Assembly: GCA_020091685.1 (NCBI GenBank)
Contig: CM034602.1
Location: 2,478,936 to 2,542,935 of the forward strand
Origin: Lutjanus erythropterus
Taxonomy: Eukaryota > Chordata > Actinopteri > Lutjaniformes > Lutjanidae
Direction of reading: 5' to 3'
Length of the DNA: 64,000 bases
The notes beneath the pieces were generated by a model, which was not told the origin of the DNA, did no database searches, and saw nothing but the letters and a program-made list of their open reading frames with translations. The translations under genes were made by a program, and so were the position numbers. Shown piece after piece: positions 41,412 to 61,724 of the stretch (position 1 is the stretch's first letter; the number at the start of each line of letters is the position of its first letter).

Positions 41412-49181
<7,770 letters not shown>

Positions 49182-49681
49182 NNNNNNNNNNNNNNNNNNN
49201 NNNNNNNNNNNNNNNNNNNNNNNNNNNNNNNNNNNNNNNNNNNNNNNNNNNNNNNNNNNNNNNNNNNNNNNNNNNNNNNNNNNNNNNNNNNNNNNNNNNN
49301 NNNNNNNNNNNNNNNNNNNNNNNNNNNNNNNNNNNNNNNNNNNNNNNNNNNNNNNNNNNNNNNNNNNNNNNNNNNNNNNNNNNNNNNNNNNNNNNNNNNN
49401 NNNNNNNNNNNNNNNNNNNNNNNNNNNNNNNNNNNNNNNNNNNNNNNNNNNNNNNNNNNNNNNNNNNNNNNNNNNNNNNNNNNNNNNNNNNNNNNNNNNN
49501 NNNNNNNNNNNNNNNNNNNNNNNNNNNNNNNNNNNNNNNNNNNNNNNNNNNNNNNNNNNNNNNNNNNNNNNNNNNNNNNNNNNNNNNNNNNNNNNNNNNN
49601 NNNNNNNNNNNNNNNNNNNNNNNNNNNNNNNNNNNNNNNNNNNNNNNNNNNNNNNNNNNNNNNNNNNNNNNNNNNNNNNNN
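49182..49681. other. Assembly gap of exactly 500 N
   Basis: The gap begins inside an aass exon (after CACC C) and ends nine bases before the left inverted end of the KDZ transposon. Its length equals that of the first gap, so the true distance is unknown. Long open frames through it are artefacts. Confidence 0.99.
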
Positions 49682-49690
49682 CATTAATAC

Positions 49691-49805
49691 CTGACTGCAG
49701 CCCGGGCTGCCCCCGAAGCCGCAGCAAACCACGCCCCCTACATACCACGCCCCTTACACACCACGCCCCTTACACTTCACGCCACCCGCAAACCACGCCT
49801 GCTGT
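49691..49805 (+). repeat. KDZ left terminal inverted repeat with ACCACGCC units
   Basis: After CTGACTGCAGCCC the sequence carries AAACCACGCCCCCTACA, TACCACGCCCCTTACAC, ACCACGCCCCTTACACT, TCACGCCACCCGCA and AAACCACGCC. These roughly 16-bp units could serve as a row of transposase-binding sites. They match inverted units at the right end. Confidence 0.8.
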
Positions 49806-49819
49806 TGGTACGGTGGCGC

Positions 49820-49865
49820 GCAGGCAAGCAAGAAGAAGAAGAAGAAAGAAGAAGAAGAAGGCGGC
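49820..49865. repeat. (GAA)n tract near the KDZ left end
   Basis: AAGAAGAAGAAGAAAGAAG runs just inside the left inverted repeat and upstream of the proposed start codon at 49933. Confidence 0.85.
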
Positions 49866-49932
49866 AGTACGGGCGATTAGGAAGACGAAGAAGGCACAAT
49901 TTATCAGTAAATGTAGGCAAGACGCGATATCA

Positions 49933-52900
49933 ATGCCGGTTCAGGTGAGACACATTCATATTATTTCTAAATTAACACTTAATGTCATTAAATTAACACT
50001 TAATGTCATTTTAACCGTACATTCGCCAACCGACTGCAGTTGCCAGTAGCACGTAGGTCGTTTACATTTTGGGAAGATATTGACGTTTAATTTAACGTTA
50101 ACATTTTAGACATCTTTTGCTTGGCAGAAAGAGCATTAATTACTTTTTTTCAAATAAAAATCTATTTCTTCAAACTCAATACACTGAAAATGTCCGCGAG
50201 TAAACCCATTTTGTGTCGTATTATACATGTGTTAGGCTATATGAAAATCAGAGTAATGAGTGAGCAAGGGATGATAACAGAACAGTGGGGGAACACGGCA
50301 CGTAGACTCAGAACTCAACATATCAAACTTTTTTTTTCTTTAGCAAAAATATATTCAAAGAATAGTTTTGGTGATATGTATGTTGATGAAATTTGATTGA
50401 AGTGTGGTTTACAGTTCCTTTTATTTCTTTTCAAAATAAAATGTATAAAGTAAGGAAGTAGGCCTATGAGTTTTTTTAATAGTATTTTATTCTCCTATAG
50501 ACCAACATCACAACATTTCGGGAGGGCACATGCCCGGAGCTCATTAAATTGGGAGTGGACACTTTTCAGTGCCCAATGTGCCACAAGGTAGGGCCATACC
50601 ATGCCCTAATTCCCCATTTACAAGGCCACCAGAAGTCCGTTGTTAAATGTGGAGGTAAGTTCAACCACAGATATTGATAAAATGTTAATACCAATGCCAT
50701 TATCGATTCCTATTGATCTGATTTTGTCAATTATGTTATCGATTTATGGTCAGTAGGCTATTCTATGGGAAACATAACTGTTCTATTATTGTCACTGTTA
50801 ATCTTTTGGCTTGCTATATACAGTCTGAAGGCTGCACTGCCCTGCACTTGAGTTCTGCCTTTGTTGATCAGCATCAGATGATATTGGTTCCAAATTCAAT
50901 TTGTTGTTGATTTCAATTGGAAGTGGTTCTCAATTTCATCCCATCCCTAATTGTGACACTGTATGATAAGTAGAGATTACTATGCAGCATGATAATACTT
51001 TTAATTGGTATCATATGTCCCCAAGCTCATCAAGTACTCTCATCACTGCCCAGGCATCTGATGATGGACAAAAGGCAGAACTCACCTGTGGGCAGTGCAG
51101 CCTCCAGACTGTATATAGCAAGCCAAAAGATCAACAGTAACAATAAAAGAACAGTTAAGTTCTTGGACAATGTGTAGACCTACTTTTCTATAAATCTTAT
51201 AGAAATTATTTTTATATATTACATATTTACAAAATATTTTCTTAAAATGCACCTGTAATATCTTCCATATTTTTTCTGCCTTTCAGGATATAATGTTTAC
51301 AAATGTCACCTTCATTGTGTGGCCAGCAGCCATTACCATTGCAGCTACTGTCCGGGTTATTGTAAGAAAGGAGCTGTTCTTCAATCACTTCAAAACTTGC
51401 CTAACGGCAGGTACACCAGTGGCAGTGACTGCAGCTCCACCACTAACGGCGCGGGCAACGATGGGTCCACCACTGACACCAGTAGCACCGGGCGGGTTCA
51501 CCACTGACGTTGGAGGGTCCATCACTGACACCAGCGGGTTCACCACTGATGCCAGCATCGCCAGTGGGTCCATCACCGACATCGGCGGTTCACCACTGAT
51601 GCCAGCAGCGCCAGTGGGTCCATCACCACATCGCGCGGTTCACCACTGATGCCAGCAGCGCCAGTGGGTCCATCACAGACACCGGCGGTTCACCACTGAT
51701 GCCAGCAGCGCCAGTGGGTCCATCACCGACATCGGCGGGTTCACCACTGATGCCAGCAGCGCCAGTGGGTCCATCACCGACATCGGCGCGGGTTCACCAC
51801 TGACACTGGCGGCGACGGCAAGTCCACTGCTGGATACAGCAGCGACAAAGGCTTCAAAACTTGCCCAAAGAAGATGACAGCCATAAAATTTTGATATCAA
51901 AACGCAGAAAAACCACATGTTGTTTTTGCAACTTGATATTATTAAAGAAAACCTCAAAGCTTATTCAGAGAAGACACGCATCAAAAACACGAGACATCAC
52001 AGCCAATCGCTATCTACAGTCTGTGTGTATTGATAGAAAAAGGGGCATTTTTGCAGTTTTAATGATATTCAATGGTCCAGCCCAGTACATTCATGTCCAA
52101 AAGTGTACCTGGGGTGAGAAGCCACAGATTACCTGTCAGTTGGACACATGCAACAGGCTATATGAATATGCACGCAGAAGTGGGCAAGTAGGTTTTGACT
52201 GCCAACATATTCAGTCAGTGGTGTATGGTCCTGTAGCCACTAATTTACCTGTTGCCCTTGATGAAGAGATTTTAACAGATATGGTAATCAACAAATGGTT
52301 CAGCAAGGACACAGAGAGAGATTGTTTAAGAAGGAAGCTGGCTGCTGATGCAGATGGTGCACCACTGAGCTTTGAAGTAAATCTCAGGAAAGAACAAAGA
52401 CAGTACTTTTTTTCTGTTTTTGAGCCACACATCTCCTCATACTGTAGATTTGGAAGGCTCATGGTCCACTACAATGGTATCAAAAATACTTGGCATTGCC
52501 CTTGCACAAAGGCTCGAAAATCCTGCCCACACAAAGCCATAGCTAAGTGGCACCTGCACCAGCTAAAACCTGAGATTTTCACAAATCCGGAAAGCTGTCA
52601 TGAAGACCCCCCTGAGACATTTTCAGTTGAGACACATCCTGCAGTTGACACACAAACAGAGAACATTTCCCTGTATCCCCCAGAGGGGGAAGCACTGGTG
52701 GAAATGGTGGAGTACCTTATTTCACACAAGGCCCTGCCAGCAAATCTCTCAAGAGACTTGACATTGGTAAAGTCGTCATCGGATATCCCTAGGAACTTGG
52801 TCCCACGCGAGAACTATTGCCACAAGTGTCCAGGCGAAGTTCCTCTTTCAGAACCGATTGTCATATCGAACAAAGCCAAGATTGTTACAATCAATGAAGT

Positions 52901-55900
52901 TGTGGAGGGTAGGTTGTAGTCCATGATAGCAATTGTAATTGCTGTTTTTAATTTTCATGCATGATAAATATAGTCAGTCATTCTGTAATTCTTGAAACAT
53001 TGACAAGACTTTGAACATCCCTTTTCTTTTCTTTTTTAAGGTGTAACAACATATTGCAAAGAATGTGCTGCATGCGGCACATTTTACCGCTACCAGGAGT
53101 GGGCAGAGGGCCTACATAACTTCAATGATCGTGTCATTTTGACGCATCATTTCTGTCTCTTTCTGAGGAACTCTATACAGGTAAATAAAATGTATAAAAA
53201 TATATTTTTTGTGTTAACCTTTGTTCCTTTCCAGTAGATACAAACATGGTGTATAATAATCTCAAGATGATAAAGAAAAATTGTCATAGCAAAGGGTCTG
53301 ATTACTCTGTTTCTCCTTTTTTAATTAATTTGCATTTAGGAGTATGGAGTGTAGATTGATGAAGCTGAAATTGAATTTAAACAATTTTAGCAGAAGGCTG
53401 CAACATAACACAATGTGAAAAAACTGAATGGGTCTGAATATTTTCTGAACCCACTTTATCAATGTGACAACTTTATATTCACATCCATTTCTAGAGCCAT
53501 ACAGCTGTGGCAAGAGTGGTGGAGGCTTTGCAGAAAACAAACAATCAAAAGTATCCAGATCCTGATTTGATTCTTCATGGCTACCTTCATTTTGAAGCCC
53601 TGTCATCCCACAAATATGAATTCTCGTGTGTAAACTGTGGAGATCACCCCCCTGTTGTGATTATGGATCTGCACAAAAAGGGAGTATTCAGTATGCCAAG
53701 TGGGTACTTTTTTCTTTTCATGTTTTTTTTTATCAGAAATGCTACAGTGTCTTACAATTGCCACTGATTGTTTGTCTTTTGATTGTCAGTGTGTGATCTC
53801 CAAGAACCACCACCTGAATTTGATGGCCAGGTGGATGTTGATGACTTCTGGCTCTCTGTTAGCCAAGAAATTCTTTGTCGGGGCTTTGTGAAGAGTAGGT
53901 GAAGATTTTCAACTTTGAATTACTGAAAGGGAATGGTTGAGGTCAGGTTTCAGTGGGAGAAAGGATTCCACAAGTGATCCAACAGTCTCATATGTTGAAA
54001 AGTCATCATTTAAAGGGTCCTCTGTGCCAGATGTATCCAACTGCATACATTGATATTTCTTACGAGGAGTCGATGTGTTTTTTGTCTGGTTGTTCCTTCT
54101 CTAGGTAATGCTGCTAATCCATGTGTGATATCACCGTCCTATCACAAATGGGCACCTTGGATTGGACCACACACCAGGGCAAGCAACTTGTTATTAAACA
54201 CAGAATACCAGAAGGGTCGAGGCAGCAAGCGGGCAAACCCTGCAGACCAGGCCGAGATGGATATATGCGAGGACAGATTGATCAACGAAATAATGAACTT
54301 GAAGGTGACATTAGCGGTGATGCTTTGGATTACAGCCTGCAACGTACAGAGTAATTACTGACCTACTGAGCAATAATATGGAACTTTGAGAGTTATTAGG
54401 AATAATTAATGCTGTAACGACCAGGTATGTATTTTATAACTACGGGGTATGCAGGCTGTAATCCAAAGCGTTACCAGATTAGTTTCTAGATTTTATTCTT
54501 AAATGTTCACATTTATTAGGTGCATATTTGTGCATAACAAAAAACGTGTGAGTATAAGCAATACTTTGAATGTAATTTATGCTAGCATCTTTGCATTAAA
54601 GCTTATGTGGCTGTTAAAATATTTGCCTATGTTTTCACAGATTGACGCGGTGCGAAACCTGGTCAAAGAGTGTGGCCTTGAGTCAACGGGTTCCAAAATG
54701 GATCTTGTCATCAGGTTGAAAGACCAGATGAAAACCCGCAGTGCTTTTGACAAGGTCTTTCAAAAAGTATGGGGTGCATCTGGTAAGTTTATCAAAAATA
54801 CAAATCTGAGATTTTTGCTGACAATTACATGTATATTTAATAAAACACATCTTTAACACTATCAAAGTGAAGCATGATTTAAACCAAACACTTCTAAATA
54901 TTTTTTCCATCTCATGTTTTTTTTTTCTTTCTTTGTTTCTTGTCAAGGTGGCTGGGCAGTGATAATGTGCCCCTGTGGGATCATTAATTCTATCAAGTTC
55001 AATGTGAGGGCTGAAAGTCCACGGGACTACTGTGACATGTTGCTGTCATTTAAGCACTTCCCTAATGTAGTCATATATGATTTTGCAAGAGGTTTGGCCA
55101 CGCACACCAACCTGCGTGAACCAGTGAAAATCCCCTTTAGGCCAAATGAAGGCAGACTCACTGATGACACGCCAGAAAACCTTCAAGCTGCACAGAAAGG
55201 TGATCTGAAAGTAAACTTGCCATGGCTGAAAGTTAAAAAGGAGCATGCAGACAGCAGCGCACACCCCTCTACAGGTTCAGCTGAACACTATGCTCTGTAC
55301 GACACTTTCCACGAGGCCAACACCAAAGACGCAAAAGACTGCTTGAGGAAAATTGCTCTGGTACCCGAACTGCATGGCTGGGTGAATTCTCAGGTAGCAG
55401 AGCAGTTGTTCTCCAAAATGAGAAAGAATAACTACTTCCTAAATATGATGTCTCCAGGGAGCCATATTTTTCTCATGCGCTCTATCATTCATCATCACAA
55501 CACCATGTTGAATGAGAAGACCTTGGCTGACATTCATAAGATCTCATCAGCAGACATCACACTGGATTCATCTGGAAAGGCCATAATGGGTGTGTAATTA
55601 TCAGAAAAAAGGTAATAATGGTAATGATGTATTGTATGCACTGCTTTATTTATGTTTAAATTGTTATTTTCTAGCAACTGCGCTTTTGCAGAGCGGAACC
55701 TCACTTCCAGCACATCCCAAAGGTAATTTGCCATCCCTTTTGGGAATGCCATCTATATAATTGGAAGACAAACATGTCTCATGAACAAGGCGTGATGATG
55801 TTATATCTTTTACTACAGTGCAATTGGACCCAGCAAACATTGACCAGTGTTCAGAGGAATGTGAGGCCCTGACAATCATTTCATCACTGAAGCCCTGCCG

Positions 55901-58900
55901 AGCCTCATGGACCGTAAAGGGTCATCATCCGCTTCAGGAGCAGCTGGTAAACAGATATTTCTGCATACTGCCATCATTGTTCTTAACAACTTTTTTTGAC
56001 AAATTGTTGATGTCAATGCTTTGTTTCTTTTTCCTGTTTATTTATACCTGTTACCCTAGCTCAATTATGTCCTGGATGTTACGAGACCTGGAAATGAGCT
56101 CATCATCAAAGATGGACCAACTTGCCTTTGCAGAAGTGACATCTTGACCCTTGGACTTCAGAGAGAAATGGAATCAGTGGTACTTAACAACTGTACATTT
56201 TACTGATGAAAGCATCTTTTCATCAAAAATCATTAAGAATTCATTGTATGATGCTGTTTGTAAACTACATCAACAGGTAGTGAATGGGTGCCTCAGGCTG
56301 GTCCGGGAGATGGCAAATATGCAGGTTGGTTTAAAAAAATAAATATATGTAAGACATTTAATACTGACCAAGATTAAGTGAGTAGATGAAAAGGGAATTT
56401 CTAGGCTTGTGTGCATTACATAGATGTATTGATGAGTGACACTGAGCCATATGCTTTACCATTTTCTAGCACTTAAATCTTGGTTTGCTTTCTATCTACA
56501 GGGAAGGGATGTTTTTGTCGCTGACCTGCACATCAGCCCAACATGGCTCCCTCCCACAAACGTTGATCCCCTGCTCCATTTCCCAGTAATTAAACAATAT
56601 AAGTTGTAATTTTGTGAAAAGTCTTTGCTGGTCCTAAAATACTATGCGTCAAGGCAAATTTAATGCAAGGATAATTCAAACACTAAGCTAAATAAAATGT
56701 CTAACAAATCACTGCTCAATATCATGTACTCCCTCATCATGCATAACTGATTCAAGTGTCAATAAAATAATAAAATCAGTCAATAAAATCAGCACTTTTT
56801 TTTAACAGAAAGATGCTGACCAGAGAGATGCCCTAATCATCCCCCTGTGGATTCCAGGGCATTTTCTTCTGTGTGTAAGGACATTATACCATTTCAGATA
56901 CTGTATACAGAACATAATTTTGTGAGCGGCATACAATATCAACAGACCATGTGAAGACAAGTCATTTTTGAGTTTGCTGTGGCTTTTTGCTTATTGTGCA
57001 AACTGTATATTTTCTATAGGCAATGAGGCCACTCCAGAAAGAAATCTTTTTTCTGGATTCCCTGTACTTCAGAAAAGCTGATGGTTTCTCTAGTCAGGCC
57101 TACAGGAAGCTGTTGAGGTTGTCAGTGTTGTGTGTTCTGGCGGTCACGTTACCCTGACCTGCCAATGTTTTGAAAACGTTCCAAACATAAGTTCATTGTG
57201 AGCACTGAAAGATTGTTATAGAGTCAGAGAAGATTTGTTTCTAGAGAGCTGAAATGGACTCAAATAGACAATTTGTCAGTGAAATCAAAAGGAAAGGGGG
57301 GGCAGAAAGAAATCCTCCTTGTTGAACTTGAAATGTACCTATTTGCATGGTCCAGTTCTTGGACATGTTCCCTGTTCTGTGGATTACAGATTTTGATACT
57401 GTTCATATTTTATCAGTTTGCGTTTTTTCTCCCCAACAGAATCATAGCAGTGTACACTTTTTATGTTTTACATTGCTGTGTTTTTTGTTACTCAGAGGTG
57501 TTGCACAGCAGATTGTTGCGGGAGCCTGGACAGAGAAGGCTGCTCTGGATTTGGAGGTATTGCCTGCAATATCACTATCAAATAGATTTGTAATTATCTA
57601 CTATTCGTTAACTGTAACTGTCTGTTACACAGGATGTTCCGAAGCAGACACATGGCAATGACTGTGGTGTCTTCATGATAATGGTGAGTGAGCGTAATGC
57701 CATATAAAGTAGTAGTTAGCTGTCAGATATTCCTTGTGTCTTACATGTATTGATTTATATAATTTATCATCACTACAGTATGCCTGGTACTTTGCCATGG
57801 ATGCTTGCTTTGACTTCAGTGTTGTAAGTACCCTATAAAGTTGAAAAAAATGATATTACTACATTTTTTAAACTATAACAAAATCAACTGTGGTAGTAAC
57901 TGTAACTGTGGTCTTTATTAGGATGACATGTGTCTCCTGAGAAGATGGTGGTGCATTGTTCTATTAGAAAACCTTGGGCTGGAAGGGTATGCTGCAGGGA
58001 TTCCTGAAAGACAATTCGATTTTTAATGAAATTATTAAGAACACTTTATGCTAACACTTGTCTCTTTATTCTGGGTCATGAAAATGTATGTTAATTACAG
58101 GTACGGAAGGAAGTTTGCCCATTTTACAGAAGAAGGAAAGGCAACCCTTCGTGACAATGTACCACCGGTATTCAGGATCACACGCAAAAGAAAACCAAGC
58201 AGCACCATGGTCAGTGAAGACCTTACACAGTATCCATCACTCCTGCCTGTTTGAAAATAAGTCACCACTCAAACAGCTATTAAATGAACATTTATAGCAC
58301 ACGATGCAATATGTTCTTGATGGTACTGTGTTATACAGTTGCATTCAAAATTATTGCACCCCCATTACAGAATTGGTGTATTAGCAAAATTAACAAACTG
58401 TCATTTTTGCAATACATGTATTTGTATGTCACTCAGGCATATTTCTGACATGCACTTAAACTTCACCGTTGAAAAATCTGCAGCCAGTACAGTTATTTGA
58501 AGTGATATCTGAAGCACACCTGATATAACTAATGAAGCTATTGATAAATTGTATCAGGTGTACAACACCAGTTATGCTAAGGTGTACTCTTATGGGGGAT
58601 TCCATTGTGAGGACTGAGTTATTTTGAGACAGCAGTTGTCCTAAAAACCACATTTATAATTTGTTGTCTTGAGCTTTACCAATGTTTTTTGGTTGATTTG
58701 TTCATTGTAAAAAGAAGAAAGTCTGTACATTTTGTCAATAAACCAAATTTGCAATGGGGGCGCAATAGTTTTAAGTGCAAACGTCAGTCCTCTCTGGATC
58801 CCCATAAAACAAACTGACACAATTATGGTTTGCTTTCTGCAGAATCCACAGCACATTGACCCTGCCTTGGATCACATGTACAGTAAGAGGCCTTACAGCT

Positions 58901-60295
58901 TTCCACCTAGAGAGCAGGTTAAGGTGAGTGAAGATTATTGCATGAGAATAACATATCCAGTGTTTACAGCTGTGCACTAAGTCATGTCTTTGTGTGTCTT
59001 GATTAAGGACAATAATGACAGCAGTGACCAACAGGATGTGGTCACCACAACCAGAGATGTTGGGATCCTGAGTGAAGACATGTCTTTCGACAGGCTAATG
59101 GTAAGGACATGCAAAGGATCAAGAAACAGAATAATTATGTTTGCGGTGGCGGCACCCTTTGTAGTTGTGGGCAGTGACACCTCTCGGTGTGGACGGCTCC
59201 CATAGAATGGTGTTTCCTCACCTGGTCCCTCAGTGCTCAGCCATATTTTATTTTTGGGGTGGGGTGGATGCATGTGTGTAGTGTGCTATGTGTGTATATA
59301 CTGTACGTATGAGGGTGTGGAGGGTGGGGATGTATGTTTTTAATATGTAAAGCACTTTCTGTTTAATCAAATTTTAGGAAAGGGCTCAGCAAGCTGAACA
59401 AGAACGAAGAGTCACCAGTGAGCTTCTTTTAACGTTCATCACTCAGGATAAAGGCCTGCTACAACATCTTGAAGTGAGTTTGAAAATAAATTTTACTCAC
59501 ATACTCTAGATAATTTTGGTCAAAACATGATAAATGAATGATTTAAGTGAACCATTTTCTGTTAGCGTAGTGTTTGTATATTTATTTTGAGCAACCTCCC
59601 AAAAATATATATTTATATTTACAGGCAGTCATTGCAGGAAAAGTTGCATCCTCCTGGGCATCATCAAAGGACAGAGTCAGAATTTTCTTTGAGGAGGATG
59701 AGCAGCTGGACAGAGTGCTGGGCTTCTTGACAAGCCTGGTTGAAGCACAGGCAACCACATGTCACGATCAAGTGGCATTTGTTATGGATGTGCTTCTGCC
59801 AGAGGTAATTTTTTTTTTTTAATTTATCATGTTAACATGTTTTGTATTATTACTATTGTCAGTTTTAACTTATGGTTAATATCTTGTTAACTGCTACATG
59901 ACAGACTACTTTAATGTCTAAATGAAAGATGTCCTTTTGTTCACCTCCTGACACAGGCAACAGTCCACGCCCTTGCAGCTGTCCATGCAGTTTCCCTCCA
60001 CAGAGCCACAGAAATCTATAAATGTGGACTGCAGTATGACTTGAAGTATGCTACAAACATAAGGAGTGTGCTAATACCTATATGTATTGTTTGTACATTG
60101 TTTATGACAACTTCTCAGTGTGAATTTCCTGTTACTAATTGCTATTTTATTCCATTTTGTCTCATCAGTGAGAAACAGCTGTTGGCTTATTACTTGGCAA
60201 AAAACATGAGCAAGGAGGCACAAAAGAAAATAAAAAACTACGCTGAAAAACTACAAAGAGCTCTGGAGTCTGAGGACTTTTTGAAGAGGCTGTAG
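49933..60295 (+). CDS. KDZ-type transposase with SWIM, SAP-like and Ulp1 protease domains
   Basis: I joined 27 exons with GT-AG limits: 49933-49944, 50501-50654, 51287-52908, 53041-53180, 53495-53699, 53790-53894, 54105-54304, 54641-54782, 54948-55589, 55675-55722, 55819-55946, 56060-56179, 56277-56324, 56502-56585, 56809-56874, 57020-57117, 57496-57556, 57633-57683, 57779-57823, 57922-57986, 58101-58209, 58843-58923, 59008-59100, 59378-59473, 59625-59804, 59957-60045 and 60169-60295 (TAG). Leaving out the 464-bp insertion in exon 3, this gives about 1,448 residues. In order: CPMC...H...H finger (28-50), CHLHC...HCSYC knuckle (57-75), a CCFC...H finger, SWIM finger HCPCTKARKSCPH (near 300), CKECAACG, SAP-like helix pair (659-700), transposase core (706-919, ESPRDYCDML, FPNVVIYDFARGLATHTN), then a Ulp1-like protease with His in WIPGHF (about 1080), Asp in FFLDSL (1097) and Gln/Cys in QTHGNDCG (1142/1148), and a helical tail. 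The catalytic acids of the transposase are not assigned. The start at 49933 is chosen because MPVQ splices in phase, but an upstream start in the gap is possible. Confidence 0.8.
51388..51865. repeat. 464-bp minisatellite insertion inside KDZ exon 3, with 14-bp direct repeats
   Basis: CTTCAAAACTTGCC occurs at 51388-51401 and again at 51852-51865. Between them the motif TTCACCACTGA recurs at 51497, 51539, 51589, 51639, 51689, 51740 and 51793, a period of about 50 bp with CCAGTGGGTCCATCAC in each unit. The offset of 464 bp is not a multiple of three, so the transposase frame changes from LQSLQNLP to LQNLPKEDDSHK. A GT-AG segment at 51411-51850 (CAG|GTACAC to ACAAAG|G, 440 bp) would restore the frame if spliced, adding eight residues. 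Its acceptor has a weak pyrimidine tract. Confidence 0.8.
58334..58783. mobile_element. Tc1/mariner-type MITE nested in a KDZ intron
   Basis: The left end TACAGTTGCATTCAAAATTA continues TTGCACCCCCATTACA. The right end read inversely gives TTTGCACTTAAAACTATTGC and GCCCCCATTGCA. It lies wholly in the intron 58210-58842, so it does not break the transposase. No coding capacity. Confidence 0.75.
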
Positions 60296-60346
60296 CTGGC
60301 CGGACATTAAATGCACCTGTGTAACCCTGTGTGGTACTTTATTGGT

Positions 60347-60360
60347 AATAAAACAATAAA
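60347..60360 (+). terminator. KDZ poly(A) signals
   Basis: AATAAA at 60347-60352 and again at 60355-60360 lie 52 and 60 bp after the transposase stop codon, which fits a very short 3' untranslated region. Confidence 0.65.
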
Positions 60361-60889
60361 ATCTGTTGCTGGCTGTTTCATTTGTCTGATTTTTTTTTCT
60401 AAAATAAAACTTTTAAACTTACCCATAAGAAATCATCACCTTTGAGTGATATTTATGGCATGTGATGTAGTAGGCCAAGCTGTGACACTGTGGCTCTTAG
60501 AAAAACAGCTGGTGTAAACAACAATTTTAACTGAAATAACTGCTGCTAATTATTATTATCATTATTATTATTATTATTATTGTAAATATTAATTTTAGTT
60601 CAAAATAACCTTGGTACATTAGTCAAAAAAAGAAAAGATGCATGCACCAGATTTAGCAGAAAGCTAATTTTCATTTGCAGTCCTATTTAATTACATTACT
60701 TTCTGTTTTGTTTTGTTTTTTTGGTTGTTGTTGTTTTTTTTTAATCAATTTATTGTTTCAAGCGCATTGTTTGCATTGGAAGGCATTTAATGTTGTAAAT
60801 CAACCGTTAAAGTTGTTAAAATTGCTCCCGTTACTGCATTATTGCTTTATTTCCCTTCTGTTTACTTTCGACATGCTGTGGAACTCCAC

Positions 60890-60985
60890 AGCCACCGTAG
60901 CATCATGTGGGCGTAGTTTGTAGGGGCGTGGTTTGTAGGAGGCGTGGTTTGTAGCGGCTGTGGCTTGGCTCTGGGCTGCAGTCAG
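60890..60985 (-). repeat. KDZ right terminal inverted repeat with GGCGTGGTTTGTAG units
   Basis: GTGGGCGTAGTTTGTAG, GGGCGTGGTTTGTAG, GAGGCGTGGTTTGTAG and CGGCTGTGGCTTGG precede GGGCTGCAGTCAG, which ends at 60985. They are the inverse of the left-end units. Confidence 0.8.
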
Positions 60986-61724
60986 ACCCTTCTCGTCCGC
61001 TTGGCGCCTCTGCGCCCTACCTGGCGGTGAGCGAAGAGCAATTTTCATGTCATGACAGTTGAGCTAGCTAACTTGGTGCTGCCTGTTAGCTGCAGTAACA
61101 TATCTGCAGTAACAAGCGCCTGTCTCCCCCCGTTCCTCTGTGTGTATGAATGTAGCCCTAGCTTCAGTAAAGCACAGAGCACAGGTGAGAGAGGGGAGGA
61201 GAGACAGTGTGACAGTAAATATTAAATAAAATAAATAAATAAAGCAAAGGGCATCTTGAGGGAAAGACTGAATCTTATATTCAGTATACTTAAGCATTAA
61301 GTCAGCTAAGGTATATATAGGCTAATTGTTGTGTTTATGTTTAATTATGTCTCATGTGATTGTGTTTTTATTTGGCAATTATTAGCTGATAGCTTTATTA
61401 CGTAAAGATTGTTGGTTATGTGTGAACTTTTGCTTAATGTAGTGTGTGTAGAAGTGCCTAGAATTTGAATATTTATTATGAATGTACTTTCTTGCAAACC
61501 TATGGATAAAAACAGTCATATCTGGTGCTGCATAGTTTGAGCAGACATACACACAGACAAACTGAGATACATAAGATGAGACTAATATATTGTTTCTAGG
61601 CAAAGAGAAACACATTTGGAGGCTGCGCTTGAGTGGTGAGTGAAGTAAAATCTGAACTCAAAGTGACAACAGAGTACATTATTTGACTGTGGACTGTGTT
61701 TAGCTGCCTTAAATGGGACAGAAG

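What the first reader, a model, noticed from the sequence alone, without database searches (positions are those of the whole stretch)
49691..60985. Complete-looking KDZ/Zisupton-type transposon with an open 27-exon frame
Most KDZ copies are decayed. Here both inverted ends, nearly all splice sites, all exon phases, the SWIM finger and all Ulp1 catalytic positions are readable, with poly(A) signals just after the stop. Apart from one insertion in exon 3, no stop or shift was needed. This suggests recent activity in this fish lineage and makes it the best candidate in the window for an under-described system: a transposase fused to a SUMO-type protease.
Basis: partly seen in the sequence, partly recalled or inferred. 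Interest (0 to 1): 0.85.

Follow-up and report, generated by a model that had tools for sequence, protein, structure and literature searches.

The report
Zisupton-like fish transposon with SUMO protease
This stretch of a fish genome is a nearly complete 11-kb jumping gene of the known Zisupton kind, encoding a putative DNA-moving enzyme joined to a SUMO-protease domain and, unexpectedly, to a domain otherwise known from the tail of a DNA-repair protein; as assembled, the front of its gene is out of frame, and the few close copies found are shorter.

Summary
Between subterminal inverted repeats (49691-49768 / 60909-60985) lies one gene of about 27 exons; exons 3b-27 splice into 1,354 codons plus stop. 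Corrections: (1) the exon-3 "insertion" is a native coding minisatellite linker, also in the C24 copy and, as another repeat, in the C5 paralog; the window copy is frameshifted in the finger before it and in the repeat. (2) The KDZ profile PF18758 does not match. (3) The element starts 9 nt from a 500-N gap; no target-site duplication can be tested. (4) It is the only place found with this core exon; the next is 63% identical. Two internally deleted copies exist, one 2.9% diverged: fairly recent mobility, low copy number. Best reading: a CxC4-type, Zisupton-like transposon. Transposase plus SUMO protease is known; the PWWP3-type tail, also in C5 and its C20 derivative and apparently in a PHD-finger element, is the new part.

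The parts
49682..60995 (+). Whole element as assembled: from the contig edge after the 500-N gap to the last base shared with the C6 copy
   Evidence: Right terminus shared with C6/C153 up to 60995; left TAATAC shared with the C24 copy; gap 49182-49681 is exactly 500 N
49691..49768 (+). Left subterminal inverted repeat, containing 16-bp tandem units (ACCACGCCCCCTACAC type)
60909..60985 (-). Right subterminal inverted repeat
49933..50654 (+). Exons 1-2 (49933-49944, 50501-50654): start codon and first residues
   Evidence: part of exon 2 matches the C6 copy at 94% aa over 32 residues
51287..51400 (+). Exon 3 front: first zinc finger, frameshifted relative to the C24 copy
51401..51866 (+).
   Evidence: open in the C24 copy and an (ATIPPP)n linker in C5
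51867..52908 (+). Exon 3 rear: second zinc finger (lacking a His present in C5) and SWIM-like motif (52497-52532)
52779..53550 (+). CxC4 cysteine cluster (across two introns)
   Evidence: Pfam PF18717 3e-12; also C5 paralog 3.1e-10
53495..55589 (+). Putative DDE transposase core, exons 5-9; candidate acids at 53666 (D), 55079 (D), 55400 (E)
   Evidence: Conserved in paralogs; catalytic assignment inferred; no Pfam or PDB match (exon 9 only)
54641..54782 (+). SAP-like segment (exon 8)
   Evidence: By eye only; Pfam SAP did not match
56809..57986 (+). Ulp1/C48 SUMO-type protease, exons 15-20; His 56860, Asp 57056, Gln 57645, Cys 57663 (first base of codon)
   Evidence: Pfam PF02902 3.1e-8; SENP1 1.4e-6
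59405..60183 (+). PWWP3A/B-type C-terminal domain (exons 24-27)
   Evidence: Pfam PF20886 3.5e-23; exon 25 alone rings in the genome search
60293..60295 (+). Stop codon, followed by AATAAA-type poly(A) signals

Best explanation
A single near-full-length copy of a low-copy, Zisupton-like (KDZ-associated, CxC4-bearing) DNA transposon, probably cut-and-paste. Its one spliced gene encodes zinc fingers and a SWIM-like finger (DNA or protein binding), a CxC4 cluster, a putative DDE transposase core, an Ulp1-type SUMO protease and a PWWP3A/B-type C-terminal domain. Most likely working: the fingers bind the subterminal repeats with their GC-rich tandem units, the core excises and inserts the element, and the protease strips SUMO (or a similar tag) from chromatin or repair proteins at the site; the PWWP3-type tail may tether the complex to repair or chromatin factors. 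Shown: sequence anatomy, domains, aligned protease residues, deleted relatives. Inferred: catalysis, binding, desumoylation, tethering. As assembled, this copy could not make the whole protein, because exon 3 is out of frame.
For: CxC4, C48 and PF20886 matches; SENP1/Ulp1 in the PDB; 1,354 open codons; subterminal repeats and shared outer ends in other copies; two further loci of the same family, both internally deleted (C6, assembled again as C153; C24); purifying pattern between window and C5 in exon 9 (69, 48 and 139 of 213 codon positions 1, 2, 3 differ). Gene structure like reported Zisupton genes in Pristionchus (1,166-1,367 aa, 18-31 exons, inverted repeats, no TSD found; PMC9297572, passages).
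Against: PF18758 (KDZ transposase) does not match the spliced protein at E<=1. The genome search with PF18758 rings only at C168, but that test is weak: the same kind of search with CxC4 also missed the window, whose spliced protein matches CxC4 at 3e-12. The exon-9 profile shows no similarity to the C168 KDZ stretch, again weak: one 117-aa template, and the C8 row of that profile was misframed. Platyfish Zisupton carries CxC7 (PMC12062965, passages), not listed by Pfam for this protein. SWIM and SAP are not Pfam-significant. No TSD could be read. No expression data. Joined partial protease pieces of C5 and C301 did not reach Pfam C48 at E<=1.
Confidence: 0.85

Rival explanations
1. A domesticated, single-copy host gene derived from a Zisupton-like transposon: an N-terminally shortened protein started inside exon 3 is kept by selection.
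For: Only one place found with exon 9 of this element; 1,354 open codons where neutral decay of 1.5% predicts roughly 13 indels and 2 stops; the zinc-finger front is broken while the rest is open.
Against: Subterminal repeats and deleted sister copies a few percent diverged point to a mobile element. Over the stretches shared with C6, coding and non-coding divergence are alike (2.4-4.0% vs 2.85%), although a neutral C6 branch could hide selection on the window branch.
Confidence: 0.08
2. A recently active copy that is truly intact; the exon-3 shifts are assembly errors in and near a GC-rich minisatellite.
For: The shifts cluster in finger and repeat; the remaining 4,062 nt have none; the contig edge lies 9 nt before the left repeat.
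Against: The finger shift lies outside the repeat; no reads available here. The second finger also lacks a His present in C5.
Confidence: 0.25
3. Not KDZ: a separate DDE superfamily that shares only the CxC4 cluster and the Ulp1 domain with KDZ elements.
For: PF18758 not met; no similarity to the C168 KDZ stretch in a weak test.
Against: CxC4 is named for KDZ transposases (Pfam description) and sits directly before the putative core; length, exon number and protease resemble Zisupton (recalled).
Confidence: 0.2

Closest known systems
Zisupton of platyfish (Bohne et al. 2012: abstract recalled, text not held; UniProt G3KL21 named in PMC12062965)
   Same: About 11 kb, one gene of 24 exons, zinc finger plus Ulp1 SUMO protease, 99-bp subterminal inverted repeats (recalled)
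   Different: The platyfish protein has a CxC7 cluster and an F-box in one isoform (PMC12062965, passages); here CxC4 and a PWWP3-type tail. The 8-nt TSD (PMC12730594, passages) could not be read here.
Zisupton genes of Pristionchus pacificus (PMC9297572, passages)
   Same: Multi-exon genes of 1,166-1,367 aa with 18-31 exons, terminal inverted repeats, no TSD found
   Different: Their best-conserved part is the PF18758 domain; this protein does not match that profile
Other transposons with Ulp1-like proteases (Ginger, PMC2836005, seen only in a search listing; plant Mutator-like, recalled)
   Same: Transposon that encodes an Ulp1-type protease
   Different: Other transposase superfamilies (recalled)
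PWWP3A/B (MUM1/EXPAND1) C-terminal domain, PF20886
   Same: Domain homology 3.5e-23 and, for exons 25-26, the same exon boundaries as the C1 gene (by eye)
   Different: Here fused to a putative transposase and protease; Pfam lists no PWWP domain in the element's protein

Membership tests
KDZ superfamily | PF18758 transposase profile | tested here: not met
   No match of the spliced protein at E<=1. The genome search rings only at C168, but searches of that kind miss intron-split domains (one search missed the window's CxC4)
KDZ superfamily | Associated CxC cysteine cluster before the transposase | tested here: met
   CxC4 3e-12; also C5 paralog and C301
KDZ superfamily | RNase H-like DDE core | tested here: inconclusive
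   Candidate D, D, E only; no PDB match for exon 9; structure prediction never accepted (8 calls, machine busy)
Zisupton | C-terminal Ulp1 SUMO-type protease with catalytic residues | tested here: met
Zisupton | Single many-exon gene, about 11 kb | tested here: met
Zisupton | Subterminal inverted repeats | tested here: met
Zisupton | 8-nt target-site duplication | tested here: inconclusive
   Left outer end at a contig edge; C6 left end and C24 right end are missing
Zisupton (platyfish) | CxC7 cluster | tested here: not met
   Not listed for the protein; none found in the genome, but that search rang nowhere, not in the controls either
PWWP3A/B C-terminal domain | PF20886 profile over its cut-off | tested here: met
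   82.5 bits vs cut-off 27

The most novel reading that the evidence does not exclude
The C-terminal domain of the repair-associated chromatin factor PWWP3A/B is a module shared with DNA transposons: in this genome it ends the Zisupton-like element and its 63%-identical paralog, and apparently a PHD-finger element of another kind. It may couple transposase complexes to break repair or chromatin relaxation, next to a SUMO protease in the same protein; either transposons took it from the host gene or the host gene's tail came from a transposon.
Probability: 0.3. Interest if true: 0.65.

Novelty: new variant of a known kind. Interest (0 to 1): 0.42.

Why it matters
The transposase plus SUMO-protease design is already the hallmark of Zisupton. 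The addition here is a repair-factor tail domain carried by a transposon lineage, and apparently by a second kind, in one genome, with exon boundaries like those of a candidate host gene. If confirmed more widely, it shows gene-to-transposon (or reverse) domain traffic and suggests how such elements might steer repair of their own breaks.

Tried and rejected
Rejected: 'insertion in exon 3' (native linker); a recent burst. Left open: a TSD (unreadable); a link of the core to the C168 KDZ stretch (none seen, weak test with one misframed row). Tried without result: viral-contig scan with the core (3 pattern matches, none confirmed); CxC7 in the genome (rang nowhere, controls included); PDB for the tail and for exon 9 (none). 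Papers on PWWP3A/MUM1 with transposons: 72 papers hold two terms; the 20 listed hold no PWWP3A, PWWP3B or MUM1L1; 12 of 51 listed; 6 of 6 listed; no listed title joins the two, and unlisted ones were not seen. Bohne 2012 and Iyer 2014 are not held. Structure prediction of exon 9 was asked for and never accepted. The PHD element's protease-looking piece gave no Pfam match, nor did its 346-aa ORF. A PWWP motif was looked for in the fetched C1 stretch only by a crude pattern on the + strand: none, so the name PWWP3A/B for that gene rests on PF20886 alone. Pfam gave no match for the left neighbour.

Full report
What is there. The window lies in an assembly of 937.6 Mb in 444 contigs. The element runs from the contig edge after a gap of exactly 500 N (49182-49681) to 60995. 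Inverted repeats 49691-49768 and 60909-60985 are 80% alike over 80 columns and hold 16-bp tandem units. Outside the right repeat, ten further bases are shared with the C6 and C153 copies before the flanks part; outside the left repeat TAATAC is shared with the C24 copy. So the repeats are subterminal, as recalled for Zisupton. The outer left end is cut by the contig edge and no target-site duplication can be read.

The gene. Exons 3b-27 join into 1,354 codons plus stop. One search prints 23 of 24 introns as GT-AG because exon 15 was run 3 nt too far there; with its end at 56874 the donor is GT. I chose edges by hand to keep the frame. Evidence that does not rest on that choice: CxC4 (3e-12), Peptidase_C48 (3.1e-8) and PWP3A-B_C (3.5e-23) span introns; exon 4 alone already matches CxC4 at 3e-7; SENP1 is the best PDB match of the protease (1.4e-6); and in the C5 paralog 17 of 26 exon queries find ordered counterparts, some weak, while nine do not (its output was cut, but not in the C5 part).

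Exon 3. The C24 copy has the same linker with fewer units and reads open through finger and linker. The C5 paralog has another in-frame repeat, (ATIPPP)n, at the same place between the two fingers. The window copy is frameshifted in the first finger relative to C24 and in the repeat; its second finger lacks a histidine present in C5. Whether these are lesions or assembly errors is open.

Copies. A protein search with exon 9 found 5 places: window 100%, C5 63% open, C301 62% with three stops, C3 55%, C8 41% (lower bounds by the tool's note). A DNA search with the right end gave 52 matches (40 of 113 candidates scored): 10 belong to the window, C6, C153 and C24, one is the window's own left repeat, and 41 are of 37-62 bases in two short stretches, partly an ATT run. 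The left end gave 17 matches: the same loci plus four short ones (C11, C13, C213, C21). C6 and C153 carry the same deleted copy, with no difference over the bases compared, at least 9,900, so probably one locus assembled twice. Window vs C6: 93 differences in 3,199 aligned sites (2.9%) and 20 indel events; non-coding 2.85%, codon positions 2.8, 2.4, 4.0%. BLAST identities with gaps are lower in the left part (C6 92%, C24 90%). C24 keeps the left part to about 51983 and then jumps to 59994. For C24 no overall divergence was computed: 10 differences in 255 sites over one stretch, 97-98% in right-end pieces. With 1.5% neutral change, 2.2 stops (14% of 300 runs had none) and about 13 indels would be expected in the 4,062-nt frame; none is seen. 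The simulation is rough: the indel rate comes from mostly non-coding DNA. So the window lineage was probably under selection until lately or inserted lately.

The tail. PF20886 rings at 9 places in the genome: three at the C1 gene, one each at the window, C5, C6, C153, C20 and C3:40313681. Taking C6/C153 as one, five loci besides C1 carry it. Four belong to the Zisupton-like elements: window, C6, C5, and C20, which holds exon-3 and exon-25 pieces. The fifth, C3, lies downstream on the same strand of a PHD-finger ORF (1.8e-6) and a 346-aa ORF that I take by eye for a transposase (no Pfam match); that these are one element is inferred. Exon 25-26 boundaries and phases agree between window and C1; exon 26 is 89 nt in both (C1 counted by eye). 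Pairwise identity of the tail pieces: window-C1 42%, window-C5 30%, window-C3 25%, C1-C5 31%, while exon 9 is 63% between window and C5. The tail may have been acquired separately or may evolve faster; direction of transfer is not settled. No PWWP motif was found in the fetched part of the C1 gene by a crude pattern.

Comparison with what is known. Zisupton (recalled abstract) is a zinc-finger SUMO-protease transposon of 11 kb and 24 exons, so the fusion is not new. Platyfish Zisupton bears CxC7 and an F-box in one isoform (PMC12062965, passages). The window has CxC4 and fails PF18758 in the spliced protein. The genome-wide PF18758 search adds little, since the same kind of search with CxC4 rang only at C301 and missed the window. 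I file it as Zisupton-like, associated with KDZ by CxC4, and leave strict KDZ membership open. EXPAND1/MUM1 is said to expand 53BP1 foci and relax chromatin (PMC9778356, passages), which is the ground for the repair-tethering guess.

Verdict. Ordinary in kind, unusual in its tail; interest moderate.

Noticed in passing
48300-49181: Exons left of the gap read by eye like AASS (lysine-ketoglutarate reductase/saccharopine dehydrogenase; name recalled), same strand as the element; Pfam gave no match to the pieces tried. The join to the element crosses a 500-N gap, so adjacency is not proven.
   Followed up: partly
50771-51161: 72-nt inverted arms (93% complementary) in intron 2, probably a nested MITE; the repeat is also seen in the C6 and C24 copies, so it is older than the split of those copies.
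   Followed up: partly
54316-54475: Second small inverted-repeat stretch (26-nt arms) in intron 7.
   Followed up: no
C3:40313651-40318441 (L031): PHD-finger ORF, a 346-aa ORF that may be a transposase, a protease-looking piece and a PF20886 piece in a row: possibly another transposon kind with the same tail.
   Followed up: partly
C168:5514-5864 (L001): The only PF18758 match found in the genome (51 bits), a separate KDZ stretch.
   Followed up: partly
C6:47001-62000 and C153:25001-35000: No difference over the bases compared (at least 9,900): C153 looks like an unpurged duplicate contig.
   Followed up: partly
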